Assembly: GCA_026419775.2 (NCBI GenBank)
Contig: JAOPGA020001371.1
Coordinates: forward strand, 16,870 to 80,869
DNA: 64,000 bases
Reading direction: 5' to 3'
Origin: Acrasis kona
Taxonomy: Eukaryota > Heterolobosea > Eutetramitea > Acrasida > Acrasidae
Under the pieces are notes generated by a model, which had not been told where the DNA came from, searched no databases, and saw only the letters and a program-made list of their open reading frames with translations. This document shows, in pieces, positions 2,976 through 47,329 of the stretch. Numbering within the stretch: the stretch's first letter is position 1; each line of letters opens with the position of its first letter. Made by a program: the position numbers and the translations under genes.

Positions 2976-5900
2976 TTAGCATTGTAAGAAGGCTCTTTTG
3001 ACGCTTTCTGAAATCTCCCAAGCTTCGTTTGCAAACTTCTCCATCTGGCCATGTTCAGGTGCTCTCAGCTTAACTTCAAACTCTCTCACCTTGTTATCTT
3101 TTCGCTTCAACACCAATCCGATACCCATGGCATAATAATATACTTCACCCACCACGAAAAACGTTCCCTCAAATTTATTATACTTGTACCATTTACTCTT
3201 GACGTGACGAACAATACCTAGGTACTTCATTTTATCACTTACTGTCAGGGTGCAATCGCCATTGATGGTGAGATTATCAAAATGTCCGGTCGATATGGGA
3301 CGTTTGGTCTTGATGTAAATCCTCATATCAAGGTCATCCATTGCTTCTAATTTGGTACACGATAGCCATGTCAAAGGTCTGGTGCTAGCAGTCGATACGA
3401 TACCATATTGATCAAACTTTACTCTCTTCTCCAGTTCTCCCTTCTCTAGTATTGTTCCATTGTAAATCTCTTCTGTTTTGTAAACATCTGATGGGTCACA
3501 TCCCAATTTCTGGAGCACCTTATCAATATCAATGTCATCATTAATACAAGTGTACATTGTATCTGTGATATTGGGATTCTTCTTTTGTTTCGGAGTACTT
3601 TGGTTTGTGTCGAGTTCCTTAACAATAACTTTGGGTGGCGGTTCNTTTTTTGGTTTTAACGGTGGTTCATAATACCAACAAGACATTGTATCGTCAACAT
3701 CATAATAGTCATCTAGATGATAATCAGTTTTGACTGAATTATATCTTCTATTCTTGTCCAGAATAGTACAGAAATCTCTCTGTTCACTGAAACGTAAACA
3801 AAGTTCTTGGTTCATGTTCAGCAAATAATGTTTACCGATACGAATCGTACATTTTGTGACGCCAATTTGTATGGACTGTACCATTTTCTCTTTGAACATG
3901 TATTCGAGTTGAGCAAGACAAACTTTCTTAAAAGTGAGTTGATTTTGATTTGGTTCATCCCCCACGCAACACATTCTATATCGCCGACGATCTTCATGTT
4001 TATGATGATGGTGGGTTGGATGATCGTGTTCGATGAATGTAATGCCAAGACCACGTTCGAACAATATCAATCCTGATCCCTTCACAAATGACTCGTGTGA
4101 TTTTGAAGGTGATAACCTGCTCACATATTCTCTACTTTTGATGTAGGCATCGATCTCATTACATTGGTCATGAGTGCCAGTGATGGTTACTACTAATCTG
4201 TTTCTGTTCATATAAGGAGTGCTCTTCAGCTTCACTTTGAACTTATCGCACCATTGATTGATGATAAAGTCATGATGATCAAAGATTAGTTGAGTGAATT
4301 TGACTCCCAGAGTAATCACTCTATCTATTTCTCTGTCAGATCCCTGTACCGTCATAATGCTATTCACATTTGCTGTGCATTTTAGCGTCAAATAGGCTCT
4401 GAGGAATTCTGCACGTATAGAGTCTTGTAACTTGATTTCTTGAATATGAAGAACTGGATCATAATAAGTGATATGAGTGGTAGTGCATGTTCCCACTAAT
4501 CGTAAGAACTGTAGTAAGTTTGTCGAATTATAGTTTTCGTCATGTATAAGAAGATCAAGAGGCTTGAAATCTCCGGTGACATTGTAATGCACTCGATCTT
4601 TTCCCTTGAAACAAAAGTCAATGTACATGTATATCAGCGCTCTCGATGGGAACACTTGACTGATAATACCTAACGCTCTCGCCCATGACATCAACACAAA
4701 AAGAGACATGTACATGGACTTGTCCTGAATCAATTTACTCTTAATATACTTGATTTTATATAAACCATCACTGTTGGTAACCATATCTACAGGATAGTGC
4801 AAAAAATCTGATTTGTAACTAAACCTAATGATTGGAAACTTTCCATCATTCTTGAACTCTCTGGGAATAAATCTTTTTAGTCGATCGTTGATATCTCTTA
4901 GTTGAGCGTTCTCCAGTATGACATCAACATCAGAATGCACACAATCAAATAATAAAAGAGAAGAAGAGCCGTGCATGGATAACGAAGCATTTGGATAACA
5001 TTTTCTTATTAGGCCTTGCAGATTTTCAACCGTTTCCACTCTTTTTTGATAGGAATCTCTGATAGATGACTCATTCTTGAGGAGAAAATCTCGAATAGAA
5101 GAGTCAATGGTTGTATTTGAATCACTGCTGGCTTTGATTTCGATTGTGTCACCAAAAACACCCCATTTAAATGTATGATCATTTCGAGATTCTGCAATAC
5201 TACACCAAAGCTGTAACTTTTTCTTTATCCTACTTGAATATTCAGCTCTAGAGAAGGCAATTAATTCGCCTCCAAATTCCTCAAAGAACGATACTCGCAC
5301 GTCCCTCACAATACTGTTATACATGGTTTTCATTAGATCTTCGACGTTTCTTTGCTCCTCATCATATCTTGGATTCCATTTTACAACAATACCAGATGCT
5401 ATTTGTTCGTCGCTCTCAATCTTGCAATAATCTTTTATCAAAGTCATTTGCGATTTGTAATGATCAAAAATAAGAGTCTCAATCTCTTCTTGTTGGTCCT
5501 TGCTAAGGTTATCTTGATTCTTTATAAATTTAATGTTTTTGATTACATCGAAGCTCTTGGCTCTCCTGTAGATTTGACCAAGTACATTCTTTGATTCGTA
5601 TATTTCTTTGATTTCATTCTTTCTATTCATAAAATCAGGAAATCTTTCTGGTTTCAAATGATCGGGAAGATCTCCTGGCACTCCAGTTTTGGCATAATCG
5701 ACTGCGAGTGAGAATTGTTTCGAAAGGTACATGCAATCCAAGTCTTTGGCTTTTAGGGGTTTGATATCAGTCCAAACCTTCCATGCAGTGGCTATTTTGC
5801 CCATATCTTCGGATTTGTCTCTAAACTTTGCCAAGTACTCTGGTAATGTATCTAGAACAACACCAGAGACTGCAGTATAGTCATCCGGACTGTGGTTGAT

Positions 5901-8900
5901 GATGGGAAAGGCATCAACGAGACGTTCATCCCATATCACCGAAAAACGATCTCCGTCAAGATCACCTCCAGCAAGATCAGTTGGAGCAGGTCTGATTCCT
6001 TGTTGGCTGAATGCGACACAGTTCCTGAGGTGGTGTAGTTCGTTACAGTCCACAGCAGTGTACCTACGCACATCGCCAGGATGCATACATGGATTCCTAT
6101 ACACAATCACTTGTCCCTGTATAACTTGTTTATTACCCATGTGATCATCAATTTGGAGGAAAATACAATTCTCAGGTAATACTCTATACTCATCGATTAC
6201 TCCCAATACATTTTGTGATTTGGGAACAATGATTCTCGTCTTGTCCACAAGATCATTGATCTGTTTATTGTAAATTAAAACCAAAACATTGGCCCAGAAT
6301 TCATCTTGTAAAAAATCGACATTGGCGTCTCTTGCGCGATCCAGATGAGGGATTGTGGTATAACAGCGAATCACATTGTACGCCTTTTCATTATCTACAA
6401 ACATGTCCTCAAGATTATCCAACTGATCTTGTAACATTTGTAGGAAGACACCATCAGGGACACCAAGTGATGACATTAGAATGATGGATTGTTGATTCAG
6501 ATAACAGATATTGTAATCGGACCAACTCACAACATTAAAGGAATGATGAGGACCTGGTTCGAATTTGGACATGGAATCACGGACTTCTATTTTCATTTCT
6601 GATGCTATTTCAGGAGAGATTGCAACGACGCCTTTAAAGCCACGCGATCTGATTTGAACAGCTGAGGGTATAGATTTAAGATTTAATTGATATGTGACGG
6701 CTTTCGCCACCAATTCGGACATTTTCCCGATGCCATCCGTAAATGAGCCGTTGTCTTCAATCATATCGTATTCGACTACGTCAGGCTCTGTCTCAACTTC
6801 AAAACAAGAAGTAAACATGAGACCCATTCTACTGACATATTTGTGAATGTATCGATGATCAAACACGCCCATCCATCTATGAACATCTGCTATTGTATTT
6901 TGATCAGATTCCTTCATAAACCAGAAGGAGTGCTTCTTCAACTGACTGTTTGAGCAACCGAGATACTTAAAGAGATCATAATCTTTTGACATGATTCCAT
7001 GTTTAATAACTTGTGCGATATAACTGGTAAATTTACCAAAAGAAACGTTGGTGACCGCATCTTCGTCTCTAAATTGTACGCGAAGCAACGAACCCGGGTG
7101 GATATTTTCCAGATAACGAGTAACTCGATTATGCATGATCAGTTCCTCATCAAACCAAATCTTGGTGGTTGGGGTGATCACGCATCGTTTAACGTAGAAC
7201 ATATGAGGAGGGATATTAGTCCTCGATGGTGGCATTTCTTCTTGTACCTTTGCTTCAAAAGGTACAAATTTTATTTTTGCATAGTAGATCGGAATTTTCA
7301 ACATTTCATGATTTAAAATGTCGTCGAGATGATGATTAGAGGAAAATACAATAGAGTTGAATTCCTCGCCATAAAGACTTTCACAAACCCTAACATTCTC
7401 GCCTTTTATTATTTTATATACTTCTGGTTTGAAGTCAAAGCGAAAGAGCAGTTGCCAGTTGCCTCGTCCGTCGTCAAGTTGTAATAAAATCGGTTTTGTG
7501 ATGCTTTTCCATGTAATAGTTATGGTGTACGCTGGGCCGACAACATTAATGCCATCAGAATCAATATGGAGCGAGTTCTCTGTCCATAAGGCAGTGAACT
7601 TCATGACACTGATGATATGCTTAGAGGAATTGAAGAATTCACTTTGGCACGGAATAAAATTGATCACACCAAAATCGTATTTTTTTACAGAATAAGAAAT
7701 GACTGAGGGAAGAGCATCACGTTTGATCCATAAATCATCTCTCACAAGGTCCTTATAAGCATAGTTCAATAAAGACTGTTCTTCACTATATTCTGTGCTA
7801 CTCAGTTCGTAAGCTTTTATTACGTTTTCACTAAGGGATACCACAAATGTCAATTCACTAATGCTAAATTCATATTCACAAAGAACGACAATCTTCACAT
7901 GAGGAGCACAACTATCATATTTTTTATTGCACCATTCTTTATAGGCGTTTGATGCATTTTGAGATTGCTTTATTTCGTTGCACACACTCTTCACTGCCTC
8001 GATCATGTTCTTTTCCTTCATCTGCAATTTCTGCTGCATGTCCCTCTCGGAAGTATCACACATTACAATGAATTTAGAACGATGTTCTCTTGCCCTACCC
8101 CTCATTTGCATCATGCTCTTTGCGGAAGTCATGGCCTCAAAAGAAATCACAAGGTTACAGCTAGAGACATCAAGACCCTCTTCAACAACACTCGTAGCAA
8201 CAAGTAATTGGCAATGTCCCTGTTTGAATTTTTGAAGAACCTCTGACTGATCGGATTCATAGTCCATGCCATCCAAGCCACCATGACCAAATATAACTTG
8301 TGGCGACATCTCACTGTATTTAACCTTCAACTTTTCGATGAGTTGACGACCGCTATCTCTCGTACGTACAAATATAATAATCCTGCCTTCTTCGAATTGA
8401 TCTAATTCATAATATAGTTGAGCGAGTCGCTCTGAATAAACATCGGGTACACTCATAACATTTTGATTCAGCTTTTCTAATTCTTGTTCAACCTCGTTTG
8501 AGAGATTAGTTTTACGATTGTTTATTATTTTTTGAATGTCCTCCTTTGCGACCTTGGTACCAAATAATTGAATAGTTTCAATTCTTTTATAGAGTGTTAA
8601 TGATAAATCAATAGCCAAATACACAGGGTCATTAACTTTCCAAAGTTGTTGAATGTTCTTGAGGTCCCTTACAAAATTTTGGTCGTAACAGCTTCTAACA
8701 ACAAGATCGAACTCTTTAAGAACTTTCTCTTGTAGTACATTCTCTACAAACCGAACAATTATATTTATTAATTCTTGTTCCGATGGATTACGTTGTGTTG
8801 TACACCATTGTGGATCTTGAGTCTTTATCATTGATTCAAACTCTATAAGAGCTTCTCTTGGATATACAGGTACCACTGAGAAGGTGGAGCATAACTGATT

Positions 8901-9869
8901 TAGCTTTTTCACAGTACCACCAAGGTAAGCATCTTCTACGGGCGATGCCGTTAAACAAAGGACTCTGGGCTTTTGTTTAGCTTTATTAAACACTTCCATT
9001 ATTTTTACAAATGGATGATTACCAGTTCCGTTGTGAGCCTCGTCAAAAACCATTGCACAAAAGTCATCTATTCTGAGTCTTGTGTCATTTAAGCAATTCA
9101 ACAAGCACTGAGCGGTTATACAAAGAACTCTTTGATTTTCTTCTTTCATCTTTTCTAACTTGCTTGTAATATGGGATACCTCACCGCAAAGTTTAAGAAC
9201 TTTGTGGGATGTCTCCTTATTAATGTATTCTGACTGCTGATAAACTAAAGGAATACGATGCGTGATGAAGACTGCAATTTTGTTTGGATTCAAGTTTAAC
9301 ATTCTGTCAATGAACAGAATTGAAATCAGTGTTTTACCACATCCCGTTGGCACACACACCAAAGATGACTGCAGCAGGCATTGAATGTAAAGTTCAACTT
9401 GGTATTTCCTTGGTGTGGTTTTCTTAAGGTGTAGTGGTATAAGATGTTCTCTGGTGGAGGCAAAGATTGTTTGATATATCGGTTTTTGATTTGTTGTCAA
9501 AAGTACCCTGTCTTTTGCAAATCTTACTTTGATTACTCCGGCATATTGCTTATAAATTTCTTTCCACTTCTTTTGTTTTGGGTTGGGACTTTCGTCGCTT
9601 AAATAAACTTCATCTCTAGATAGTGTATAGACTGTTTGATCATAAAAGCCTATAACCATGACATTTCCTATCTTTGCATTGCACAGTGAATGTTTGAGAA
9701 CTTCAGGGGAAATTTTTCGCTTCTTCGTATTTGGATTGACCTCTTTCCTCACTAGTTCAGGTATCTGCAGAATCTCAAGATGATATGAATCACCTTCGCC
9801 CACGCAAAAGCGAAGGTTTGAGGGATTCGTGATAGCAACTTTGCAGTTCAAGCAATTCACTGTCACCAT
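2976..9869 (-). CDS. Helicase - RNA-dependent RNA polymerase - nucleotidyltransferase fusion (RNA silencing)
   Basis: A single intronless frame of 2,297 residues starting at ATG 9869. Residues ~150-610 form a Dicer/RIG-I-type superfamily 2 helicase: Walker A PTGCGKT at ~174-180, DEAH at ~276, TAS at ~307, motif VI QMRGRARE at ~588. Residues ~880-1510 form a QDE-1/Rdp1-type RdRP with FTDGIGK at ~1043, HPGD at ~1263 and the catalytic DLDGD at 1303-1307. Residues ~1600-1850 form a Cid1/poly(A)-polymerase-like nucleotidyltransferase: GSSS at ~1634, the DxD pair D1647/D1649, and a third Asp at ~1695 in PVDMVT. The last ~450 residues, including a His-rich patch near 1970, are not recognised. An N at 3645 leaves one residue undefined. 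Helicase-RdRP fusions are known from Dictyostelium; the added nucleotidyltransferase would put all three RDRC activities in one chain. Likely role: making dsRNA from single-stranded templates for siRNA production. Confidence 0.93.
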   Translation of the reverse strand: MVTVNCLNCKVAITNPSNLRFCVGEGDSYHLEILQIPELVRKEVNPNTKKRKISPEVLKHSLCNAKIGNVMVIGFYDQTVYTLSRDEVYLSDESPNPKQKKWKEIYKQYAGVIKVRFAKDRVLLTTNQKPIYQTIFASTREHLIPLHLKKTTPRKYQVELYIQCLLQSSLVCVPTGCGKTLISILFIDRMLNLNPNKIAVFITHRIPLVYQQSEYINKETSHKVLKLCGEVSHITSKLEKMKEENQRVLCITAQCLLNCLNDTRLRIDDFCAMVFDEAHNGTGNHPFVKIMEVFNKAKQKPRVLCLTASPVEDAYLGGTVKKLNQLCSTFSVVPVYPREALIEFESMIKTQDPQWCTTQRNPSEQELINIIVRFVENVLQEKVLKEFDLVVRSCYDQNFVRDLKNIQQLWKVNDPVYLAIDLSLTLYKRIETIQLFGTKVAKEDIQKIINNRKTNLSNEVEQELEKLNQNVMSVPDVYSERLAQLYYELDQFEEGRIIIFVRTRDSGRQLIEKLKVKYSEMSPQVIFGHGGLDGMDYESDQSEVLQKFKQGHCQLLVATSVVEEGLDVSSCNLVISFEAMTSAKSMMQMRGRAREHRSKFIVMCDTSERDMQQKLQMKEKNMIEAVKSVCNEIKQSQNASNAYKEWCNKKYDSCAPHVKIVVLCEYEFSISELTFVVSLSENVIKAYELSSTEYSEEQSLLNYAYKDLVRDDLWIKRDALPSVISYSVKKYDFGVINFIPCQSEFFNSSKHIISVMKFTALWTENSLHIDSDGINVVGPAYTITITWKSITKPILLQLDDGRGNWQLLFRFDFKPEVYKIIKGENVRVCESLYGEEFNSIVFSSNHHLDDILNHEMLKIPIYYAKIKFVPFEAKVQEEMPPSRTNIPPHMFYVKRCVITPTTKIWFDEELIMHNRVTRYLENIHPGSLLRVQFRDEDAVTNVSFGKFTSYIAQVIKHGIMSKDYDLFKYLGCSNSQLKKHSFWFMKESDQNTIADVHRWMGVFDHRYIHKYVSRMGLMFTSCFEVETEPDVVEYDMIEDNGSFTDGIGKMSELVAKAVTYQLNLKSIPSAVQIRSRGFKGVVAISPEIASEMKIEVRDSMSKFEPGPHHSFNVVSWSDYNICYLNQQSIILMSSLGVPDGVFLQMLQDQLDNLEDMFVDNEKAYNVIRCYTTIPHLDRARDANVDFLQDEFWANVLVLIYNKQINDLVDKTRIIVPKSQNVLGVIDEYRVLPENCIFLQIDDHMGNKQVIQGQVIVYRNPCMHPGDVRRYTAVDCNELHHLRNCVAFSQQGIRPAPTDLAGGDLDGDRFSVIWDERLVDAFPIINHSPDDYTAVSGVVLDTLPEYLAKFRDKSEDMGKIATAWKVWTDIKPLKAKDLDCMYLSKQFSLAVDYAKTGVPGDLPDHLKPERFPDFMNRKNEIKEIYESKNVLGQIYRRAKSFDVIKNIKFIKNQDNLSKDQQEEIETLIFDHYKSQMTLIKDYCKIESDEQIASGIVVKWNPRYDEEQRNVEDLMKTMYNSIVRDVRVSFFEEFGGELIAFSRAEYSSRIKKKLQLWCSIAESRNDHTFKWGVFGDTIEIKASSDSNTTIDSSIRDFLLKNESSIRDSYQKRVETVENLQGLIRKCYPNASLSMHGSSSLLLFDCVHSDVDVILENAQLRDINDRLKRFIPREFKNDGKFPIIRFSYKSDFLHYPVDMVTNSDGLYKIKYIKSKLIQDKSMYMSLFVLMSWARALGIISQVFPSRALIYMYIDFCFKGKDRVHYNVTGDFKPLDLLIHDENYNSTNLLQFLRLVGTCTTTHITYYDPVLHIQEIKLQDSIRAEFLRAYLTLKCTANVNSIMTVQGSDREIDRVITLGVKFTQLIFDHHDFIINQWCDKFKVKLKSTPYMNRNRLVVTITGTHDQCNEIDAYIKSREYVSRLSPSKSHESFVKGSGLILFERGLGITFIEHDHPTHHHHKHEDRRRYRMCCVGDEPNQNQLTFKKVCLAQLEYMFKEKMVQSIQIGVTKCTIRIGKHYLLNMNQELCLRFSEQRDFCTILDKNRRYNSVKTDYHLDDYYDVDDTMSCWYYEPPLKPKXEPPPKVIVKELDTNQSTPKQKKNPNITDTMYTCINDDIDIDKVLQKLGCDPSDVYKTEEIYNGTILEKGELEKRVKFDQYGIVSTASTRPLTWLSCTKLEAMDDLDMRIYIKTKRPISTGHFDNLTINGDCTLTVSDKMKYLGIVRHVKSKWYKYNKFEGTFFVVGEVYYYAMGIGLVLKRKDNKVREFEVKLRAPEHGQMEKFANEAWEISESVKRAFLQC

Positions 9870-11565: not shown

Positions 11566-14500
11566 TTAATGTTTCGAACACAAAGCAGCAACACCCATCA
11601 ACGTATACTTACTGGGTGGATCCGGCTCACACTTTAACGTGATATCAAATATATAATTCAAAGCAGTTCTTCGCGGTAAACGATACACTGGACAAACATA
11701 GGGTCCTCCGCTATCCTTCCCTCCCATCTCTCCTCCTTGAATCTGATTTACCGAAATGTAAATCACCGGTAAAGGATTAAACAACACTTTTGGTTGAGAA
11801 TCAATCAGACGACCGCTCTTCTTATCCCAGGCAGCTCCATCCAAAAACAAACCATAAATATAAACACCCTCCATGTCATCGTTGTTGATGGAGTTTTGAA
11901 TTTGTTCCTTTTCTCTCTTTGTGACCTCCGTTTTCAAAGATACCGACTCTAGCGACCAACCGCTGTGATGACGAGTGGCCTGTTGCTTCACCGCAGTCAA
12001 GAATCCTGGCGTGTTAAAGAATCCACTAATCCAGAAGCATTTTGGAGGTCCATTCTCCAACCAATCAGAATATTGTTCGTTTCTTTGCACCACGTCTGCA
12101 AACCAATAACCGAGCGTCGGAGAGTCCCAAGAAACCTTCTTCCATTTGATAGGCACTTGTGCATCGTAAATGCTATTCAGAGCCGACTGCAAATCAGGGC
12201 TCATCACGATGGTACCTGCAATTGCCAATTTCAAATCATTTAGCGTCCTCCTCACCAAGCTCAATACCACTTGCATCCTATCTACTTCTTGTCTCAAAAA
12301 GATACTTAGTGGAGAAGGAGTATCTCTGTGCTGATCCAACTTTTTGATTTGTTTCTTGACACTTAACATGTTGTAGTCATTGGGCAAATCTTCCAAACTC
12401 TTCTTGACCTGCTTCAGCACCAATTCTTCTCTAGTCTCTCCACTACTTCCGCTACTTTCCTTCGGTTGAATGTTCATAATGGTTTCTAGAACCGTTCCCG
12501 CATTGGCACTATTGAATGCAATTTCAGCGTTCGAATGCAAACCAAATACCTCTGGTGGATCGAACATTGGTAACTTATGTGCCACATATTCTCTATAGTC
12601 CTTTACTTTGGGTAGATCAGGACAATAATAATTATTATGGAATTGATACTCCTTATTGAATAACTTGTAGTCGTAGAATTTGGCGCCATATTTATCCAGT
12701 AATTCCCTATCGTAATCATCCGTCACTCTTCCACCGTACTGAACGTCGCAAATCATGTAACGAACGGTGCTCCACGACAGTCGCTTGTTATCCGTTTCAT
12801 ACATGTACTTTCCCAAAAAGTGAAGTGCACATTCCAAATCAGTTTGGTTAAATTCATAAGGAACGCACCAGCCCAACGGTCCGAATTTCTTTCTTTCGAT
12901 CAAAGTGGCGTGTAGGAAACAAGTAGCATATACCAATTTCCTCCACTCTGGCGTTTCGATTTGATCGAATTTTTCTTGACTGATCCACGAATATGATTTG
13001 AGTAAGCTGGCCTTGATGCCAGTGGGCGGATCGTCAGTTACTTTGATGCTCATCTGTAACAGATTGATGGGGAAGTTTTGTGTTGGTTCGGAAGTGATCC
13101 ACACCCTGAAATTCTTATCGTGATCCTCTTTGGGCAAATCAGATAGTACTTGTTCGAGCGTGGGTAGATATTTCAATCCCAAGTGACAGTTTTGTAATAA
13201 AACCCATCCACCAGTAGCTATTCCAGCACGAACCAACTCGTGTGCCTTCTTTTCTTGACCTTGACCCATACTCACGCGATCCAACGCAATTTTATGATTC
13301 TGGGCCAATTTTTCGATACTGGTCGTCAAATCACTTCCCATGCTCAACAAACAAATCACTGGAGTGGTTGGATTGGTTTCTGCCCATGTTTCTTCTACAT
13401 TGAGAGGAATCGAATTAACGAATTGATCGCCGAGCGTATCGATTATATACTGTGCACAACTAGCCATGGTTCGATCCAACCTCCAACAACGAACCAATAA
13501 CAAGTGATGCAGGCTCGATAGTTTGTATTGATCGGGTAGTTCTGCAGTTTCTGGATTCTTGGAATCATAAAAGTCTTTCCAAGCCATTTCATTAGCCTCT
13601 ACTTGATGCAAAATCGTTTTGAATTTCGGTAGTTCGCTAATGGCACATAAATTGACCCACGCAGTATCTGGAATCCAAGCGAATGGTTTACGACGAGGAA
13701 CGTCGTTAATATGAAGCGCAGCACCAGCTTTGATGAGCGTCTGGAATTCCTTGTGACTGATCGCGCCGCTCTTCAGATCGATCTTCAAACTCAACAAGAG
13801 AGCATAAGTGGTCTTGTGTTGTTCGTAGAGACCTCGTTGTACGTACTTGAATATACCGAACGTTGCGAAGGAAATGATGTTTTCTATTCTCTTGGATGGC
13901 GTTCGATCTTGTTCTGATTTGTCGATGGCGTCGATGAAGAGTTTAATGAATTGATTCAAACTAACTTGATACATGCAATTAATGAGCGATAATTCGGTCA
14001 TGACAAAGTACATGACGCTACCACGCGCTGCAACGGGTCTAAATTCTTCTCTCGCTGCCGTAATGTTGCGTTCGGTATCTACGCTTCCTGCTAATTTCTC
14101 GGTCATTGTTCTCGAACGTTCTTTGGCTTTGGCCAATAGTTCAATCACCGAATCATCGTCCAATAAATTCTTTTTTGATTGGGATAGACAATTCAATAAT
14201 TCTTCTTCGCACTGTGCCATGACTTCTTTACAGGTTTGTATTTCGTTCATCAAATCCTTTCTCTTCTTTTCCAACTCGTACATTTCCTTCACGATCACGA
14301 TGCCTAGCAATTGATCCTCCAAACCAGTGCTGGTGACCGTAAAGTCGATAATGTTCGTCTTTGCGAATAATTCTGGACTGTAGCGTGGATTGGCTAATTT
14401 AGTGGTCATGTATAATCTGAATCCAGGTTTGAAATTCACTTCCTTGTCTCCTATTTTGACCTTGATGCGTTGTTTGTTGGATTTGATGGGCATGAGGTCC

Positions 14501-17500
14501 ATGATGGGATCCAATATGGGATCAATGTCCTCTCCTATATCTTCAATCAATAATGGAGTGCCCAATTGAACGCTCTTTTCTAGCGTTTCTCTAAAATCTT
14601 TTGCATTGAGCGTGGTGGCCACTAGGTTATTGGGGGCATCCATTTTGGCGACCCAGGCTCTTCCCTGGCCCTGTGGATCGATTAGTAATGGATATCTAGT
14701 TCCCTTGGTCACGATGATTCCATTCTGACTGCTGTATTCGTCATTAGGAAGGCCCTGGATCACCCATTCACCAATTTGAGTGGGATTGACTACGAATTTG
14801 ATAACGTCCATGTTATCGCTGTATGGTATCTTTCGTTGTTTCAAATCATCGATGCTAACTTGTTTGAGAATTAAATTTCTAAAATCTTGATTAAAGGGTC
14901 CTGCGTAGCTCAAGAATGTTGCGGTGACGCTCACATCACCAATTAACTTCAAGATGCGATCGTCGAACGATTTGCTATCTCTCGTCCAACGAATTCTCTC
15001 GGTGGATAATCCCTCGATGAGAGCTTCTGCACTCTCCATGCGTCTCTTTGTCAATAGGGCATCATCCTCCAATGCCTTTTTACTGCTCATCGCACCATCT
15101 AATTTATTTTTCATTTCGTCGAGCTCGGCCTGTTGTTTTCTGACCTCTTCTTCTGCTTTATTCAATTCTCTGCTCGCTCTGCTCATTTCAATTTCCATAT
15201 CTCTGACGCGTTGTTGTTTAGGAGCGACGAATTTCGCAGTTTGATAGTAGGTGCACATACATTTTACCCACTCGCACAGGGCACCAGCTGCCTCTGCTGT
15301 TTTTTCCACTTTTTCCTTCTTCATATCGGACTCACGATGATAAGGATATAGTAACTCAACTGTTTCATCGTTTAGTGTGATTTCCTTACTGAATTTTTGT
15401 AAGCTTCCCACAAAATTCAAATCACTCATCATCATGAGCGTGTCCTTCCATGAAGCCTTGTAAACTGTCTTCTTTTCCTTCTCTTCGATGACTGTTTCTA
15501 CTTTTTTGGAAATGGGTCTGGATAGAATCAACAATACAGTGTCCATCACTCTGGTCACTAGCTCTGGTGGTGATTTGAATCCCTTGACAATGTTGATCTT
15601 GTCCTTATCGAGAGAATTGACTGCTTTGGTGGCTTGCTCGAGTGCAGGTTTTGCCAATTCCAAATCACGCTCGCTATCTGCCTTCTCTCGACTCACCACT
15701 TGTGCTCTGGCCTCAATTTCTGCTTTTTGTCGCAATACTTTATCTGTTTGTTCCTCTGCTTCGATTTTTTGTTTGGTGACCTGATCCAATAGAATTTCAC
15801 TCTTGCGTTGCGCTACGGCCAAATCCTTTTCTTTATTTAACAAATCCTCCTTCATGACCGCAACTCCTTTACTGGCGTCATCTAACTTTTGTAATCCCAA
15901 GTTGACCTTATCGGCTAGCGTCTTGACCTCTTCGTACTTATCAGCATATAAGCTCTTGTAGCTACCTATGAACGATAGATAACTCTTGGGTGTCACGTAT
16001 GTATTTCTTCTGAATTTATTGAAATAGTCTTTTGTCAACTGAACAACGTTCTCGTGTACATTACACATGTGATTGACAAGTTCAGCGCGCTGAGCAGGAC
16101 TAGATACCAACTGTGGTAGATCCGATAAGAATTTTTGAGCAGTTGCATGAAGTGCTTCGATGGGCCACGGTGGGAACCAATCAATGGTACATCCGCTAAT
16201 CACACCAGGGAATTTCCTAGTGCGTTGACGTAATTGATCTCCGACCGGCGAGAAGCACAATACAACGTGTAGATTATCACGAGCTCGATCAATAAAGAAT
16301 TTGAATAGATTCTCTGGCGTCGAATTGAACCCAGGACGTGATTTGGCTGCAATGGGTCTCAATTCATCCGCCATCATTTGTTGATCCTCCTTGCTGAACA
16401 AACCAGGGATCTCACCAGATGTCAAAATCATGTTAACGTATTCCAAGAATTGTTCATCCTTAATATCATTATCGGTGAATAAAAAGGTAACGGGTGATTT
16501 CAGCACAGCCATTTTGTAAAGATTACGTAAATCATCCAACATGTTATTGATGGAATATGTTTTTGTAATATTCAATTTGAATATTTTGTAACCAGCTATG
16601 AAACTGGCCAATCGGGTTAAACTTTGTTTACCGCTACCACCGACACCAACCAATAATGCATTACCACGATCCGTTCGAATGATCCTACTGATTCTCATCA
16701 AGTGAATCATTGCGAAATCGAACAAGACCAAATTCATTGGTTCTCTCTTGTTCACCTCGTTGTATTGTACCAAATACTTGTGTAATCGAACATTGAGTGC
16801 TTCGAAGCTTTCGATGGGTTCGTAAATCTTGGGAACCACTGGAGGAGCTTCGTCATATTGTTCCATATCATCGGAGGTTGATGATTTCTTGGAATCATTG
16901 GCAGGTTTATCATCCATTTGTTCCATTCTCATAAAATCAACAAAGTACTTTGGTTTCATCATGGCCAAGCTTGCATCTTCTCCAAATTCTTCTTTTAAGA
17001 GCGACTTGACGGTACTTCCGAACCAAGCTCTGTCCTTATCATCCGTAAACTTGTCCTGCAACACTCTATCACATTCGTGTTTCCACAAACTGATTAATTG
17101 GAACTCTGTGGTGATGACTTGAGCATTCGCTTGTAACATTCCCTGAAACACTCTCGATAAATCTCTTAGATTGAAAATGTAATGGAATTTACTAGGAGTA
17201 GGTAACATTTTTGATTTTGTAATGCTCCATAGGCTCCTGGTGAGCGTCGGTATGATCTTTACCAAATTCACAATCTCTTCGCTGAAACCCCTCGCTGAAC
17301 AAAAGTGACCCTCGCAGATGGTCCCGAATATAGAGTCGATGCTCTTTGTGGATGGGAAGGTCACGTTGAAGATTGAAAAGTGACGTTTGAGACGATTGGG
17401 AATATCGTTGCGACCACCTCCCGGGTGATTCATTGCAGCAAAGAATTGAACATCCACTACAGTTAAGAATTGACCAGGATTCGTGGCCAATTCCAAACTA

Positions 17501-20500
17501 TAGAATCCACCATTCTCTATCAGCTGACGAACAATTTCATTTGTGATTTGATCGCCCCACTCGTTGATTTCGGGCATGTTAATGTCGTCGATGAATATGA
17601 AGAGCGTGGTGCCCAGTGGTGGTCCATAAGTAGTTCCCATTCTTCTATCCAACGAACTAAATACTGAATTTTGTACGATGCCGGGCGTGGTTGCGCTGGA
17701 GAAGGCCATTGTTTTGTACTTGTACTTTGTTGCATTTTGTTGTTGAATGTATCCTTGTATGGTGACTGATTTTGCAGTTCCGCTCTCTCCGATCAACAAG
17801 ACGCTTAGGCCTTGTTTGGCAATAATATCAATCAAGAATTCACATCGAACGCTATCGACCGTAGGTATCAATATGCTGTTGAAATCTGGTGTCACGTTGG
17901 TGGGGTATTTATAAGGAGTCACTCTGGTCCTCCAATGCTTCCAGTCGCCCTGTTCATCAATCACATACTCGAATACAGTTTCTGGTGATTCTTTGGATCC
18001 CAATTGTACTTCGATTTTTGGTAAATCCAATCGACGATCTTGAGACATGTACCGATGGAATCTAGATCGATCGTCCGATTCTAACAATCCACCAATGCCC
18101 CACATGACACCAAAGATGAACATTCTTTCAATGTGCTTCTCAGTGAAGAACTGCTTGCTGCTGAACGAATTGAACAAACCATCGATGATGTGCAACACGG
18201 TGCTGATCATGTTGGCGGATCCCAAATCCATCATCTTTTTACAATGAGTCTCTACGGTTGATAACAAGAAGTCGACATGACTGTTGAATAATCTCTTGAA
18301 TTGATCCATTTCTTTATCAGGCCTTTTGCTGTGTTTCTTTAGCCATGCTTCGAATATAGGTTGCCAACCCAACACGGTCTCACCTATGTAAACCATACCC
18401 ATTCTAGATACGGTTGCTGGGGATGCATTGTCCAAATTACCAACCTCGAATACCAATTTGAGTGATTTGGGCATGTTGAGACGATCTCCATTTGCTAATG
18501 TGAGCGAACGAGTGTCATCTAGCACGGTGTTTAGATTTTCGATCCAAACGGCATCAACTGGTCCGTCCAGTACGATCCATGTGTTCTCTCCCTTCTTCTT
18601 TACTGAATCGGATGTGGATGAAGCCTCGGTGTTGTTACCAGATGCCGCTGCTCCTCCATCAATGCTCTTTCTCCATAGTGCACTAAAGATTCCATCGGTC
18701 CAATCCTTGGTAGTTGGATCCACGAACATGCCAAACATTTGACTGGCAGTGATGGCCTTTGGATTCATCTTGACCACTTTGGTAGTTGTTTCAATCTTGC
18801 TGAGCGCTTGTGCCAACACTTCGATGCAACAAGTCTTACCGGTACCACTCGGACCCATAATACACAATCCATGTCTCACTTTGTATTGTTCGTACAATTG
18901 AGTTATTTTTTGTATCCATGGCTTGTGCGCAATGAGACCCTTCTTTGCGACTGCATCCATGATGGCAGCTTCTAATCCCTCATAAGAAGGATCCGCGAGG
19001 ATCATGTTGGGGAACATATCCTTGAGTAATTCAACGAACAGCAATGAATCCTCGTCCACTAATTTACTACTGTTCATGTCGTTCAACACTCTCATCAACA
19101 CCCTCATCTCTCCGTCTTCGTTTTTATCTGCACTTTCGCGCAGCGTTCTTCCACAGGTCCTCAACACTGATAAAATGTTACGAAGACCAAAATCGTAATG
19201 CGTTTGAGCGCTCAATTGTTCTTCGCACAATTTATACAAGACGTTGAATTTCTTGGATAACATGTTATTGGTTTGGAAACCACATGCTGCCAATTTGACC
19301 TTCATGATGATTCTGCGATTAGGTACCACTACAGCAATAGTGCGGAATAATGCTTTCATGTTCTCCGGCAATTCTGTTCTACCGGCGTATCCAGGATTCA
19401 TGGTAATAAACACTGCACACTTGTCGTCTAGTACCAAGCTGGTACCATCCACGAATTGAAAAGCTTTATTATTCATTCGATTGCGTAGAGCATCGAATAA
19501 GCATTTGATCTGCGAAGCAACCACTGACAAGACCTCCAGTTCTACTCTGTTGATCTCATCGAAGCCACACCAGACGCCTCCCTGTGCAATTCCCTTGAAT
19601 AACATTGCCATGGATAAATGACCCATTTGATCGCTACAGTTGATGGTGATAAAGTATTTACCAATGGTCCTGCCCATGTCCTTTGTGGTTTCGGTTTTAC
19701 CAGTTCCTGCTGGACCAGCCGGTGCTCCACCCAGGAACATACCCATGGCCTGTGCACATGAAATGTAAATACGATCAGTAAGTGGCGTAATGACCAATCG
19801 ATCGGTGCACCCCAAAAATTCATTACAGTATTCAAATTCGTTATCAGTGATGCAAACGAAACAACCATCTCGATCTGCTCTCCAATAAAATCGAGTTTGT
19901 TTCAACCACTCGAAATCAGTGGGCGATCGAATCTTCTTGTGCATCAAGTAAGCAAAGATTTCTACTTGATGGATGTGAATGGTGATGAGCGTTTCTATTC
20001 TCGTGCGATCCAACGAATCCAAATTCTTGGTCGTCATCTTGACCAAGTGCTTAAAAATATCATCAAACTTTTTTCTCGTCATTTGCATGATGGTACGATC
20101 CGTTCTTGCTTTTCGAAGCGCCATTTCGCTATCGTACGTCCATAACAATTGTAATCCCAACAATGAAATTTGACTTGGATAAGCCTTGATGAATTTTTCT
20201 AATCTTGGTTCGTCGGGCACTGCCAAATCATTAATGATGCTCGCGCTCATGTTCCTTGCAATGTCGTTAATGGTCGCTCTCATTTCCAACACGAGTCGAT
20301 TCAACCAAATCTCAATGTTGCCCTGTGCCAATAAAGGTTCGCTCAACGGCACCAATTCTCCCTCTGCACTCTTCATGCTCATGATTTGATTCTTGACCTT
20401 GTGATCGAATTCCATCTTGTGCAATATTACTGAAGATACTCAACAAGTGTCTTTGGATGGACGAAGGATCGCTTCCCTGACCAAGTATTTCTAATAATTG

Positions 20501-28714: not shown

Positions 28715-29962
28715 TTATTCATGATAGTATCGAAACACTTCATAAGAGTACAGTAGCTTTCCTTCATCATCATAATGTAGTTTTCTGTAGCAAGTGTCGC
28801 AAAAGAACGATGGTTCATCCGCAGTATACTTGTCCTTGTAAGTGACCCATTGTGATGGGTAAATGTCACACACTCCACATTTTCTTCTTCTAATCTTGGC
28901 CTGAAATGTTCTTATTGGATAAGCGAACGCATTATCGTTGTCGAGGTCATTGACCAACCTCATTTCTGTGAAAACAATGTAGTGCATACAATTTCCCTGA
29001 TGGCAATAAACATATCTCTCGTGCAAGCGCAGCTGTAAATCATAAAACGATGCTTCTTCCATTCTTTTCGACTCTGAAGGAACATTTTGAAGACCAGATC
29101 TAACGCCTCCAACATTCTTCTTGTAAATTTTAAGTTTTTCGTCGTTCATCCATTCTATAAGTTGCTTGCTGTAATCCAAGTTTCCTGCGTCGCGCATGTC
29201 TGAATAAAATCGATTCTCGATGAAAAAATATCCACTCCGAGTGTCTGGTCCATCGAGGGTGTGATCGCTCAAGCAGTAAAGTACATCTCTGAGCTCCGTT
29301 AGTTTTTGACTGGCACGGACAAGAAACTCTTGGGTCTTTGTATTGGTCTCTGGATGGAATAGTGCTACTTTTATAACAAGCTCGTCGCTGGGAATGTCAC
29401 CGCGTAATGCTTGCCCAGTTTGTGGATCTCTAACAACGTTCGAATACATCATGGATGGTGTAATGTAGTTTGGCTCTTTTTTTGATATGAGGTTGCTGTT
29501 TAAAAGTTTATTGACATCTGATAGGGATTTTAGAGAAGAACCTCCAGTGTTTATGCTCATAACCGTTGGTATGTTGGTAAAGTCGATTGTATTATTGACT
29601 TCTGGAGGGGTTGAGTTAAATTTTTTATCGGACTCCTCGGTTCGTTCCAGTTCTTTCACTATGGCCGCCTCTATAATGTCATAGTTTGTTGTTATTTTGA
29701 GATCAGTTGCATCTAGAAAAGGGTCGGATTCTGAGGTGTCTAATTCTAGTGTTCTATTTATTAAATCTCTTTCCCTGGCAAGACACTGCTGCCAAGTTCT
29801 TCTAAATACCCTTACATCCAGTAACGGACAATCTTGTGCAATATGTTCGGGCAGTGAGGAAGCTTGTGGCGGTAATGATGAGGCTGCTTGTGTTGTAGAT
29901 CTTATACGACCTTTGCCATCGTTCGCCCTTGGTTTTTTTGAGTTTGCTCTTTGTTTGCTCAT
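28715..29962 (-). CDS. SNAPC3: snRNA-activating protein complex subunit 3 (SNAP50)
   Basis: A single exon from ATG 29962 (MSKQRANSKK) encodes about 415 residues. The C-terminal half is the diagnostic SNAPC3 zinc-binding region: HQGNCMHYIVFTEMRLV, then RRRKCGVCDIYPSQWVTY, then EPSFFCDTCYRKLHYDDEG. In other eukaryotes this protein binds the proximal sequence element of snRNA promoters and recruits Pol II or Pol III. The N-terminal ~180 residues are low-complexity and not conserved in type. The start lies 44 bp from the ATG of the divergent PAP2 gene, so the two must share a very short promoter region. Confidence 0.88.
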   Translation of the reverse strand: MSKQRANSKKPRANDGKGRIRSTTQAASSLPPQASSLPEHIAQDCPLLDVRVFRRTWQQCLARERDLINRTLELDTSESDPFLDATDLKITTNYDIIEAAIVKELERTEESDKKFNSTPPEVNNTIDFTNIPTVMSINTGGSSLKSLSDVNKLLNSNLISKKEPNYITPSMMYSNVVRDPQTGQALRGDIPSDELVIKVALFHPETNTKTQEFLVRASQKLTELRDVLYCLSDHTLDGPDTRSGYFFIENRFYSDMRDAGNLDYSKQLIEWMNDEKLKIYKKNVGGVRSGLQNVPSESKRMEEASFYDLQLRLHERYVYCHQGNCMHYIVFTEMRLVNDLDNDNAFAYPIRTFQAKIRRRKCGVCDIYPSQWVTYKDKYTADEPSFFCDTCYRKLHYDDEGKLLYSYEVFRYYHE

Positions 29963-30006
29963 AAAAGAGATTACAAAAGTCAATCTGGTAGTAGCTTACA
30001 ACATCA

Positions 30007-33943: not shown

Positions 33944-36115
33944 TTATTGAGCCTTCATTAAACAAAACAAGGTTGAAGTGAAATCAGATGTCTTCTCGGA
34001 GGGAATTTCAATGGCTGCACTACCAAACCCAACATGTTTTACATTTCCGGAAATGTCCAAATCTTGATAAGCCTTCTTGAAGCAACTACCAAATTTATGA
34101 CCAGAAGATCTGGTACCAATTCCAACAATCAAATCACTCCGCGAACCATCCGAGTTCGGAGTGGGCACGCTAATAACGATTGGCAATTCAATTTCGTCGG
34201 TTCTTCTGTATATTTCCATAAACATCAGACCAAGTCGACTCACCGTCATGGGCGATAACACCAAATCACCGTTACCATCGTCACCATCACCGTGGTTGTG
34301 TTCTTGATTGGTGTTGCTGGACGAGAAGCTATTCAAATCCATCGCCTTCAAGAATATACTGCGGAATGCAGTGTTGCGACCTTGTGAAGAGGAAGTATCC
34401 ATTTTAAAAATGATTTGTTTGATCATTGCCCTTTGCATATGTATGCTCCTTTGTATGCCCTTGCGTATGAGCGTAGTATTGCCGTTCAAGGCTTCGTAGG
34501 CAGTAGTAAAGTTATTTTCCCACAAATCTGCACTCATGTGATTACTGCCATTGGCACTTCCTTTAGGAAGACTAGAAGTAGGCATCTCCATCAAGGCTAT
34601 CAGCGAGTGGACCATGTCGCTTGCGCTTACTTGTAGAGTGGATCCGTAGTGCTTAATAAAGCTACTGTACATGACATTGCTGAGTTTATAGTCCTTACAT
34701 TCCTTTTTGAAACCAGCAAAGAATCGATCCTTATCAGATAACATCATATTAGAATAGTTTTGTTGGCATTGAGTCAACCCAACACCGATACGCGCCAACA
34801 AATCATGTAACTGTTTATTTGCATTATGTTTATATAAATCAAGTTGGCTCATGATGCTCATGGTGTGCCTCATGCTTTCATACAGCGACCAATGCCTGTA
34901 CAGCATTAATTTGAATTCGCATTCTTGAAATGAAATTCTCTCGTCATCAGTCACCGGAATCATTGCGCCGTCATCTGTCAGCATTTGTGGCCGTATCGAT
35001 GGATTGGTCTCCACCACCCTTCCAAAGTACCAATTCATCAAATTCTTGTAATCGTGATGTGAAATGTATTCGAATTCCAATTGTTCCGTTAATCCTACAA
35101 TTGCACTCCATAGCACATTGTTGTGTAGTCTTGATGAGGACAGGAGAGACGTGTCTGAAATTTGAATCATTTTGTAAATCAAGTGACTGGATGGAGGTGC
35201 GCGGTATGATTTTCGATAATATTTGGCGGCCATAATGTACGTTTCGAAATCTTCCTTTGTTTTGAAATCTCTTCGGCGAACGCCCAGTGGTTCATCTTGC
35301 TCATTATCATCATCGTCATCATCACTTCTTGTGCGGTTACGTGCAGTTGGGTCGTACTCATCGTCGTCGAAAGCTCTGTCGTCGTCCTCTTCGTCGCGGT
35401 CGATAAAATCGTCGAGGTCATCAAGATCATCTTGATCAAAAAATGCGGCGTCGATTTCATCTTGGTCTTCGTCCATGTCGTCTTGGCGTGTTTGTTCTAC
35501 TTGTGGTTGAGTGAGAGCGTCAATTTGACCGTGATAATTGTCGAGCTTTGAAATCACGTTCCATGTGTTTTCTAGTGTGGCATCGTTTTGTTCTGAAAAT
35601 AATTTTGAAAATGGTTCGAATTGTTCCCCATCAATGGTGTCTTCGCTAACGAAAAATAAATTCTTGTTAAACTCTGTTCTGCCGAATATGTTTTTTAGGT
35701 GAAATGGTCTGTGAGAATCAATTACATAAACAACTTGATGTGGCTCAAGACAGTTTTGGAATACAACTGCAGATAAATCCACCATGGCACCACAATTTAT
35801 GACAAAGATGGTTTTTACCTATAACTTCAATAAAAACGTTTATTAACAAAACTTACTGAGTAATTTCCTTTTAGATGTGAAATACATGCTTCATTCATTG
35901 AGTAGTAGTTGGATATAGGTATGATATCGTACTTTATAGATTCGCATTGGAACAAGGACTTTTAAAATTTAGTTTGGATGAAATTAACATTTTACCGCAA
36001 GCATGCGCAGAGAACATAAACTATCAACATCATACGCCACGAACAGCAATACGTTTTTATGATCTGATTTTATGCTATTGAACACTGTTTTGAACTCTCG
36101 CACCTTTATCAGCAT
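33944..36115 (-). CDS. CDC45: Replication initiation factor CDC45
   Basis: Three exons: ATG 36115 to ~35995 (MLIKVREF.., VLLFVAYDVDSLCSLRML), a second exon at ~35955-35860 (SLFQCESIKYDIIPIS), and the long exon from ~35816 to the stop at 33944. The introns are GTAAAA..AAAAG and GTAAGT..TTATAG. The long exon begins VKTIFVINCGAMVDL and contains NCLEPHQVVYVIDSHRP, the acidic CDC45 insert (poly Asp/Glu, ~35280-35490) and the C-terminal FGSAAIEIPSEKTSDF typical of the family. About 680 residues. CDC45 joins MCM2-7 and GINS to form the CMG replicative helicase in the nucleus; the DHH-like fold of the N-terminus is retained. Confidence 0.92.
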
Positions 36116-44980: not shown

Positions 44981-47329
44981 ATGAATCAAAGAACCAGGCT
45001 TGTTGAAATTAGTACAAAATATGGTCCAAAGCAAACTTGCCATCAATGTGCATACAGTACAGACAATCGAGACTACTTTAAAAAACACATCCAAATGGAT
45101 CACACAAACCTGTTGTCAAATGTACGTGTAACAAACAACTGTTTAAAGACAATAGAGAAGAGTTTTAAAACAGTAACTGAAGAAAATAAGACATTACGAT
45201 ACTTGTAACGCATTAACGAATCAAAATAACATTCTGCAAAACAAGATACAAATGACAAAGGACCCCACCCCCAAAATAAGCAAGCAAGAATACACAAAGT
45301 TGCATTTAGCACAGATGAGTTCTTTGAAAACAAACGGAAATCTATCATATAACCAGTTGGATCTCACAGGTAGTATATTCCAGAATATCTTCTTTGGTGA
45401 AGAGAAACTTTATTTAGCAAGTGCTAGAACAATCAAGCGATATGAGGATGCTGCATACAGTGTATTCAATGAAATTATCAAGAAGAAACTCACTGGCTGC
45501 AAGTACCTCAATTTGTTATTTGATGGATCTAATTTAAAAGGGAGAGGACAAGTGTTCAGTATTATTGCTAACTGGTTTGAAGAGCTCACTATCGAAAACT
45601 TGAATTTGATCAAAGATCAATTGGTTCATCTCAAAAACAAAGAAACAAAGACTGTAAAAGATGCTGTAGAAATAAAAAATAAAGAACATTGGGTAGCTTT
45701 ACAAGGCCAACCAAGAACAACATTGCTAGAGTTTGTGTCTATGAGTGCTGAAGCCTCTATTGATGTTGTGTTGCAATTGAAAAAAACAATAGAAGTATTT
45801 CAAATTGAAGAAAAGCTTACTCACTTCATGTCTGATAACTGTAATGTAGTTTTATGTGCATCAAAGACATTGCAACAGGATTTGAAAGCTGGTTTCCCAA
45901 AGGTGTCTATAAGATGTGCTGACCACATTCTCCAATTAATGTATTTAGCTGGTTGCAGTAGTTTAGAAGGTGTAGTTGATGTAGAGGATGATGCTTTTGA
46001 AATGACTTCTGAGGTGTTCACTATAGTGTCTGACCTTGCTTCACTTTTGAGAGAGAAATGGATTTCATTTAAAGTCTTGCTTGAAATGATTGAAATTAAC
46101 CCTAATTTTGACTATTCAGATGAAAATGAATGGGGTACTTTGGTTGAAGAGTTCCTTTATCAAGTTCAGAACTCTATGATCACTCTTATTAAAAAACCAT
46201 CACTTCACTGTATTACAAGATGGGCCACTATTGGTCTCATGCATATTTTTGGTTAACCAAGCATTTTGATGCTGTCAAAACTCTTGTTTCTCTTGAATAC
46301 AACCCTGGCACAGCTAAATGGAGAACTGTTTCCAAGTTATTTGAAGACAACCAAGGGGCAAAGACCCTGTGTCTACAATCTAGGTTGTTAGCAGACATGC
46401 ATAAAAACATGTACACATTCATCTACAATCAACTACACAAATACCAGACATTTGTATCGCATGAAATGTATGGAAATGTTCTTGTATGGCAGGATTACCT
46501 TCAAAATGTACATCTTGAGTTGGAGACCCTAGAGTACAGTTATGCATATGCTGAAACTAATGGGTTACTAGTAGAGCTAGGTGTCATGGTAAAATCTTTT
46601 GCTCAAGCTGCACTGTTCAAGCTAGAAAAGCATTTCTTTCAATGGACAAAAGAAGATTTAAAGTGGGCTGGTATTATTGACAATAGACCTAGTTTGAATG
46701 ATACTGATAGAAGCTATGGGTCTCTAATATGTGAAGAGCTGTATAAGTATTACAATAATCACGATATTGATCAGAGAGCTGAGATTGACAAGTATAAGTT
46801 CTTTCAAATAGACGATAGAGAAATTATGGACTATATTGACAACAACAATATGCCTGATCAATTCATGTTAATTTGGAAGGAAATATTTGCTGCATTATCA
46901 GTTGTAAATGACATGGCCAAGAGTTTTTTCTCTATTTTAAAACTATGTAATCAATCTAGCATGAAAGAATCATCATTATTCTACAAGGCTAGAAACAAGT
47001 TTAACAATTATACTGAATCTAGTTTTGATCAAGATGATGTAAAATTAATCAGTAATGCATATAAGCAACTAATAAAGGACCAAAGAGGTAAAAAACGTCC
47101 TATTCATGAAGTGGAATCTGCACAAGCTGTTATAAATGACCTTAAAGAAACTTCTAGTAGAAATAAGGATGAACTTAATAAGGTCATTGAGAAGGAAAAC
47201 AGTCAATCCCGTGTTGCATTTCAAATTGCACTTCTCATTAACTCCATTTCAATCCCTTGGTTCATCATTCTCGAAAGCGAAATAGATCATTCATTGTCTC
47301 AAGCACATGTATGGTTGGTTTATTTATAG
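44981..47329 (+). mobile_element. hAT-like transposase gene with two frameshifts
   Basis: ATG 44981 starts a frame with a C2H2 finger (CHQCAYSTDNRDYFKKHIQMDH-type spacing, BED-like). One base out of frame near 45195 it continues as a long ORF, and again near 46250, in a T run, to a stop at 47329. The joined ~780 residues show the RNase-H-like pattern of hAT/DUF659 elements: NLLFDGSNLKGRGQVFS, then FMSDNCNVVL, then VSIRCADHILQLMYL, SLHCITRWAT, and a C-terminal helical region. No terminal inverted repeats were identified. Either a recently dead element or an intact one with two sequencing errors. Confidence 0.68.

What the first reader, a model, noticed from the sequence alone, without database searches (positions are those of the whole stretch)
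2976..9869. Helicase, RdRP and nucleotidyltransferase in one polypeptide: a possible single-chain RDRC
One uninterrupted frame holds a Dicer/RIG-I-type helicase (PTGCGKT, DEAH, QMRGRARE), an RdRP with DLDGD at 1303-1307 and a Cid1-type nucleotidyltransferase (GSSS, D1647/D1649, third Asp ~1695). In S. pombe the RNA-directed RNA polymerase complex is Hrr1 helicase + Rdp1 + Cid12; Tetrahymena also pairs Rdr1 with nucleotidyltransferases; Dictyostelium fuses helicase to RdRP only. I know of no described fusion of all three. It would enforce 1:1:1 stoichiometry and could link template unwinding, terminal nucleotide addition and second-strand synthesis.
Basis: partly seen in the sequence, partly recalled or inferred. 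Interest (0 to 1): 0.92.

Follow-up and report, generated by a model that had tools for sequence, protein, structure and literature searches.

The report
Sensor-helicase-RdRP-tailing enzyme in one chain
One gene of this unnamed eukaryote encodes a helicase, an RNA-copying polymerase and an RNA-tailing enzyme in a single chain, behind a domain predicted to fold like the RNA-end sensor of RIG-I; relatives in a glass sponge, Hydra, brine shrimp and a dinoflagellate have the same order, and the protein likely does alone the RNA-silencing step for which yeast and worms use several proteins.

The parts
9534..9869 (-). Residues 1-112: likely zinc-site domain (C6, C9, H60, C63) predicted to fold like the RIG-I/MDA5/LGP2/DRH-3 C-terminal (regulatory) domain
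7953..9428 (-). Residues 148-639: SF2 helicase of the Dicer/RIG-I/Hef kind, with motifs PTGCGKT, DEAH, TAS, QMRGRARE
   Evidence: Pfam; PDB by sequence: AncD1D2 5e-43, Dicers, RIG-I; profile of other-group fusions only E 1e-112
7179..7952 (-). Residues 640-897: stretch between helicase and polymerase match, no Pfam match
5562..7178 (-). Residues 898-1436: cellular RNA-dependent RNA polymerase, DLDGD at 1303-1307 (5949-5963)
   Evidence: Pfam RdRP 2.5e-139; PDB plant RDR2 6e-75
5061..5525 (-). Residues 1449-1603: RdRP head region, also present in stand-alone RdRPs
   Evidence: head profile of other-group fusions E 2.3e-5; also found in stand-alone RdRPs
4341..5123 (-). Residues 1583-1843: terminal nucleotidyltransferase, catalytic palm plus helical central domain; G1634, S1635, D1647, D1649, D1695
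4113..4304 (-). Residues 1856-1919: possible KH-like region
   Evidence: Weak profile matches to KH domains (E 0.1-0.8); helix-strand-strand-helix in the model, pLDDT 66-80
2979..4112 (-). Residues 1920-2297: conserved C-terminal part, fold not determined (IGxHYLLN and RPLTW motifs)
   Evidence: Profile of the C-terminal part of other-group fusions only, E 3.6e-15 (1782-2295); 55 RdRPs without the other modules best E 0.42; no Pfam match above cut-off; model mostly low confidence

Best explanation
One 2297-codon frame encodes a helicase, an RNA-dependent RNA polymerase and a terminal nucleotidyltransferase behind a domain predicted to fold like the RIG-I RNA-end sensor, and the protein likely acts as a single-chain RNA-directed RNA polymerase complex that amplifies silencing RNA. 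Proposed order of steps, all inferred: the N-terminal domain and helicase would recognise duplex or 5'-end features of a target RNA and move along or open it; the nucleotidyltransferase would add untemplated nucleotides to the template's 3' end, as RDE-3 does in trans in C. elegans; the RdRP would start on that tail and make the second strand; Dicers and Argonautes of the same genome would turn the dsRNA into guides. Shown here: the modules, their order, intact catalytic motifs, their conservation as a unit, and a genome that also has RNase III-pair and Piwi/PAZ genes.
For: Modules and motifs. Same order in 86 of 86 proteins with helicase, RdRP and nucleotidyltransferase, out of 167 collected; RIG-I-type domain ahead of the helicase in 65 of 65. 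Triad in 97 of 100, so the tailing site looks kept by selection. The modules travel together: pairwise distances of helicase, RdRP and nucleotidyltransferase correlate at Spearman 0.74-0.79 over the 52 of 86 proteins with long enough domains (500 permutations reach at most 0.35; 0.47-0.49 for RdRP against the other two among distant pairs). Profiles built only from the other RdRP group find helicase, nucleotidyltransferase, C-terminal part and first domain in this protein (1e-112, 1.6e-12, 3.6e-15, 6e-6); for the last three, no value under 0.4 in 55 RdRPs without the modules. [quoted passage not shown] RDE-3 tails recruit RdRPs to templates (PMC12645942, passages); Hrr1 functions with an RdRP and Cid12 (PMC9276528, passages). 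Own genome: 3 Piwi matches, PAZ in the same 3 loci over the cut-off plus one under it, 7 contigs with two RNase III matches in one frame, two of them (C713, C797) near-identical.
Against: No activity, transcript or small-RNA data for this gene. In Nematostella, which has four RdRPs, no secondary siRNAs were detected (PMC12768352, passages). P0002, P0017 and P0022 have no recognisable active nucleotidyltransferase and P0041 lacks part of the triad, so tailing is not always needed. The RIG-I-type reading rests on a predicted model; sequence profiles are weak (E 0.003 at best), Foldseek ranks Mis18, cereblon and Yippee above RLRs, and the cross-group profile of this domain is weak for P0007 (0.007), P0003 (0.01) and P0002 (1.1).
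Confidence: 0.68

Rival explanations
1. Product-tailing version: the nucleotidyltransferase tails the new RNA or small RNAs to limit or sort them, as CDE-1 is thought to do in worms (recalled), and does not prepare templates.
For: CDE-1 is a poly(U) polymerase tied to the CSR-1 small-RNA pathway (PMC6351104, passages). The nucleotidyltransferase lies after the RdRP and beside a possible KH-like region.
Against: Nothing in the sequence decides it; an enzyme fused about 150 residues behind the polymerase match could meet template and product alike.
Confidence: 0.25
2. Sensor version: the RIG-I-type domain plus helicase detect viral dsRNA and hand it to the RdRP, the main job being antiviral recognition and not work on self transcripts.
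For: Predicted fold of the first domain and helicase kind; C. elegans DRH-1 is called a RIG-I homologue that mediates a response to viral infection (title in the reference list of PMC12645942).
Against: No CARD match in the chain. It is compatible with the main explanation rather than opposed to it.
Confidence: 0.3
3. The tailing module is a structural brace only.
For: Worn in P0002, P0017, P0022; nematode RdRPs seem to keep the helical part without the catalytic palm.
Against: Triad kept in 97 of 100 proteins with the module, P0001 included.
Confidence: 0.12
4. Assembly or gene-model artefact joining separate genes.
For: One N at 3645; no transcript of this locus seen.
Against: Unbroken frame; 86 of 86 relatives in the same order, two from transcript assemblies by name.
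Confidence: 0.01

Closest known systems
Helicase-RdRP proteins of Dictyostelium, oomycetes, Hydra and Nematostella (Bollmann et al. 2016, PMC4791657, passages seen)
   Same: DEAD helicase, helicase-C and RdRP in this order; Hydra and an oomycete (Aphanomyces) are in the family collected here
   Different: That paper's main text has 0 occurrences of nucleotidyltransferase; the RIG-I-type N-terminal domain and the tailing module are added here. Dictyostelium RrpA/RrpB were not fetched.
C. elegans RdRP complex (EGO-1/RRF-1, DRH-3, EKL-1, with CDE-1/RDE-3 in the pathway)
   Same: SF2 helicase with RIG-I-type C-terminal domain, cellular RdRP and terminal nucleotidyltransferase working in one pathway; five other nematode RdRPs keep what looks like a remnant of the tailing module
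   Different: Separate chains there; the sensor domain follows the helicase in DRH-3 (residue numbers) and precedes it here; no Tudor part (EKL-1) matched here
S. pombe RDRC (Rdp1, Hrr1, Cid12)
   Same: RdRP plus Cid-type nucleotidyltransferase plus a helicase
   Different: Three chains; Hrr1 is a ZNFX-1 orthologue, an SF1 helicase
RIG-I-like receptors
   Same: Helicase kind and predicted end-binding domain fold
   Different: Domain order swapped, no CARD match, RdRP and tailing enzyme attached
GLD-2/Cid1/TUT/URT1 terminal nucleotidyltransferases
   Same: Palm, triad and helical central domain
   Different: Part of a four-module chain

Membership tests
Cellular RNA-dependent RNA polymerases (PF05183) | RdRP domain with DxDGD | tested here: met
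   2.5e-139, DLDGD 1303-1307
Cellular RNA-dependent RNA polymerases (PF05183) | RNA synthesis | not testable with these tools
   needs protein
Dicer/RIG-I-type SF2 helicases | Walker A, DEAH, motif VI QxxGRxR; closest solved chains Dicer/RLR | tested here: met
RIG-I-like receptors | End-binding (C-terminal/regulatory) domain fold | tested here: met
RIG-I-like receptors | End-binding domain C-terminal to the helicase | tested here: not met
   it is residues 1-112, before the helicase
RIG-I-like receptors | N-terminal CARDs | tested here: inconclusive
   no Pfam CARD match at E<=1; LGP2 also lacks them (recalled)
Cid1/GLD-2 terminal nucleotidyltransferases | hG[SG]...DxD...D and central helical domain | tested here: met
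   Pfam score 26.5 against cut-off 27, 30.2 in the genome search
Cid1/GLD-2 terminal nucleotidyltransferases | Tailing activity and nucleotide preference | not testable with these tools
   needs protein
Helicase-RdRP (Bollmann 2016) | DEAD, helicase-C, RdRP in one chain | tested here: met
Helicase-RdRP (Bollmann 2016) | RdRP of the gamma subgroup | tested here: inconclusive
   P0001 with P0007 lies outside the group holding Hydra and Aphanomyces; gamma itself was not typed
S. pombe-type RDRC | Hrr1-type (SF1) helicase | tested here: not met
   SF2 helicase here; ZNFX-1/Hrr1 as SF1 from PMC9276528 passages

The most novel reading that the evidence does not exclude
The ancestral eukaryotic RNAi amplifier was one chain: RNA-end sensor, helicase, RdRP, tailing enzyme. 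The multi-subunit RdRP complexes of worms, and perhaps of yeast and ciliates, are its broken-up descendants, with nematode RdRPs still carrying a headless remnant of the tailing module; template tailing by the attached enzyme is the original way in which these polymerases choose and start on templates.
Probability: 0.4. Interest if true: 0.93.

Novelty: new variant of a known kind. Interest (0 to 1): 0.86.

Why it matters
How cellular RdRPs pick templates, and why they so often work with a helicase and a nucleotidyltransferase, is studied in multi-protein complexes. A natural single chain with all parts, present in animals that can be cultured (Hydra, Artemia, Macrostomum), gives one polypeptide to express, mutate and image, fixes the stoichiometry, and says which partners belong together. 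It also ties a RIG-I-type domain directly to an RNA polymerase, and turns the origin of the worm and yeast complexes into a testable phylogenetic question.

Tried and rejected
Chance or assembly artefact: rejected (unbroken frame; 86 of 86 relatives in the same order). A fusion private to this organism: rejected. Other RdRPs of the own genome also fused: PF05183 gives 9 matches on 7 contigs; 4 of the other 6 loci (C313, C79, C849, C396) were scanned together with 6 neighbouring frames chosen by me and show no helicase or nucleotidyltransferase; C556 and C33, with stops inside, were not scanned. Hrr1 as counterpart of the helicase: rejected.

Origin of the fusion: a quick RdRP tree of 76 of 157 rows puts 44 rows, each with a helicase or tailing module, in one group (SH-aLRT 100) and mixes the other 8 fused rows with 24 without modules. 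The hoped-for proof that stand-alone forms are nested among fused ones failed: on a careful tree of 30 rows chosen by me, holding all 17 fused rows together is not rejected (p-AU 0.126); the 7 group-A fused rows are borderline (0.051); nematodes plus Bryopsis are not rejected (0.49). Bryopsis joined the nematodes in the quick tree (SH-aLRT 96), but that fork is open in the careful one. The long rows P0043 and P0051 were not in the careful tree; own_C396 was in neither (split match).

Nematode remnant: profile-profile score 60, probability 92, E 6e-7, against at most 21.1 in 40 column-shuffled controls, 25.6 reversed, 14-19 against the other modules, 12-15 for two sets of fungal tails. A one-way hmmsearch with the thin nematode profile was not convincing: best fused row E 0.0075, behind two fungal stand-alone rows at 1e-4 and 0.006, all over short stretches. 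C. elegans EGO-1 itself was not in hand.

Circularity: the module profiles were seeded from members of the set (7, 7, 10 and 9 seeds); one search is the test without it.

Species of the window: not identified; the 18S search never got an answer. Base preference of the tailing enzyme and Dictyostelium RrpA/B: not tested. The C-terminal 378 residues have no Pfam match above cut-off and a poor model; their fold was not searched alone.

Paper searches. No listed title or abstract opening names a helicase-RdRP-nucleotidyltransferase chain; the library holds only open-licence papers, most listed papers were not opened, and of the five opened I saw passages, not whole texts.

Full report
OBSERVATION. 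The frame at 2976-9869 lies on the minus strand and encodes 2297 residues without a stop. Pfam finds helicase (ResIII 153-310, Helicase_C 482-593), RdRP (898-1436, E 2.5e-139) and, half a bit below its cut-off, a poly(A)-polymerase-like palm (1590-1662, 26.5 bits against 27). The start is well placed: the open frame runs only 11 codons above the ATG and the first cysteine pair aligns with the starts of relatives. One base of the gene is undetermined (3645).

HOW WIDESPREAD. Three protein searches (the third lists 120 of 656 hits) gave 166 proteins besides this one. Own profiles sort the 167 as: 65 with all four modules, 21 with helicase, RdRP and nucleotidyltransferase, 14 RdRP plus nucleotidyltransferase, 8 helicase plus RdRP, 7 RIG-I-type domain plus helicase plus RdRP, 51 RdRP only, 1 helicase only; 86 of 86 three-enzyme proteins have the same order. 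Of the 15 with helicase and RdRP but no nucleotidyltransferase match, 12 have 202 or fewer residues after the RdRP, too few to hold it; the other three are P0002, P0017 and P0022. The profiles were seeded from members of the set; the test free of that circularity is below. Named carriers of the three-enzyme chain: Hydra vulgaris, Rhopilema esculentum, Macrostomum lignano, Artemia franciscana, Oopsacas minuta, Effrenium voratum, and Aphanomyces astaci (the last without the first domain). The closest relative, P0007, is a complete ORF of a transcript assembly by its name, 44% identical over the RdRP. The catalytic triad is D/E at all three places in 97 of 100. Exceptions: P0041, P0089, P0109, and outside that count P0002 (Bryopsis), P0017 and P0022, whose module is worn or not detectable.

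ONE INHERITED UNIT. Over 52 of the 86, distances of helicase, RdRP and nucleotidyltransferase correlate pairwise at 0.74-0.79 (best of 500 permutations 0.35), and at 0.47-0.49 for RdRP against the other two among distant pairs. Profiles built only from 30 members of the group that excludes this protein (20 for the first domain, 12 for the helicase) find its helicase (1e-112), nucleotidyltransferase (1.6e-12, 1665-1749), C-terminal part (3.6e-15) and first domain (6e-6). In 55 RdRPs without the modules, four of them from this genome, the first domain and the nucleotidyltransferase give no match at E<=10 and the C-terminal part gives 0.42 at best. The first domain's profile is weaker for others of this group: P0007 0.007, P0003 0.01, P0002 1.1. 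So order, ends and modules are shared by two deep RdRP groups. Whether stand-alone RdRPs descend from fused ones is undecided by trees.

THE NEMATODE CLUE. Five nematode RdRPs carry behind the head region a stretch, named DUF7752 and DUF7636 in Pfam, that aligns to the helical part of the tailing module and the KH-like region of the fusion: score 60, E 6e-7, against at most 21.1 in 40 shuffled controls. With a sixth sequence and the head included it is 99.7%, E 2.3e-25, while fungal, rotifer and own stand-alone RdRPs match the head only. No catalytic palm is matched. A one-way sequence search did not show it. This suggests that the worm polymerases came from a chain with the tailing enzyme, and that the separate DRH-3, RdRP and CDE-1/RDE-3 of worms are a split version. 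It is an inference from profiles.

SETTING. A dynein heavy chain lies nearby; in the window I saw no neighbour with an RNAi domain among the ten frames scanned.

MECHANISM. In C. elegans RDE-3 adds poly(UG) tails to RNA fragments, the tails recruit RdRPs, and tailed RNAs become templates (PMC12645942, passages); [quoted passage not shown] in S. pombe Hrr1 functions with an RdRP and Cid12 (PMC9276528, passages). The simplest reading of the fusion is that the same partners act on one RNA: sense or open, tail, copy. All activity steps are inferred. That the tailing acts on products, or that the sensor part is chiefly antiviral, are live rivals. Against a general amplifier role: no secondary siRNAs were detected in Nematostella, which has four RdRPs (PMC12768352, passages).

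NOVELTY. Helicase-RdRP chains are in print (PMC4791657, passages). In ten searches of an open-licence library I saw no listing of the tailing module or the RIG-I-type domain in them; papers outside that library, and listed papers that I did not open, are not covered. I therefore file it as a new variant of a known kind, with a possible larger meaning for how RdRP complexes arose.

Noticed in passing
P0034, P0035, P0037, P0038, P0040 (nematode RdRPs): Their tails (DUF7752, DUF7636) match by profile the helical part of the tailing module and the KH-like region of the fusion, without the catalytic palm.
   Followed up: partly
P0043, P0050 (Ceratobasidium): Fungal RdRPs with precomputed Pfam domains PF13086/PF13087 (recalled as SF1, UPF1-like helicase domains): perhaps an independent Hrr1-like helicase-RdRP fusion.
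   Followed up: no
P0004, P0135 (EukProt): A double-stranded-RNA-binding motif (PF00035) in these fusions; in P0004 it lies before the RIG-I-type domain.
   Followed up: no
P0002, P0017, P0022, P0041: Members with a worn tailing module but a kept C-terminal part.
   Followed up: partly
G000 contigs C713/C797, C518/C334, C195/C493: Equal match scores on two contigs each, as if both haplotypes were assembled.
   Followed up: no
window 11566-20424, minus: Dynein heavy chain motor part upstream of the RdRP gene.
   Followed up: no
window 28715-29983 and 33944-35785, minus: SNAPC3 and CDC45 homologues.
   Followed up: no
window 45252-47329, plus: Two overlapping frames without Pfam match that look by eye like one broken transposase-like gene (one search gives no family).
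   Followed up: no
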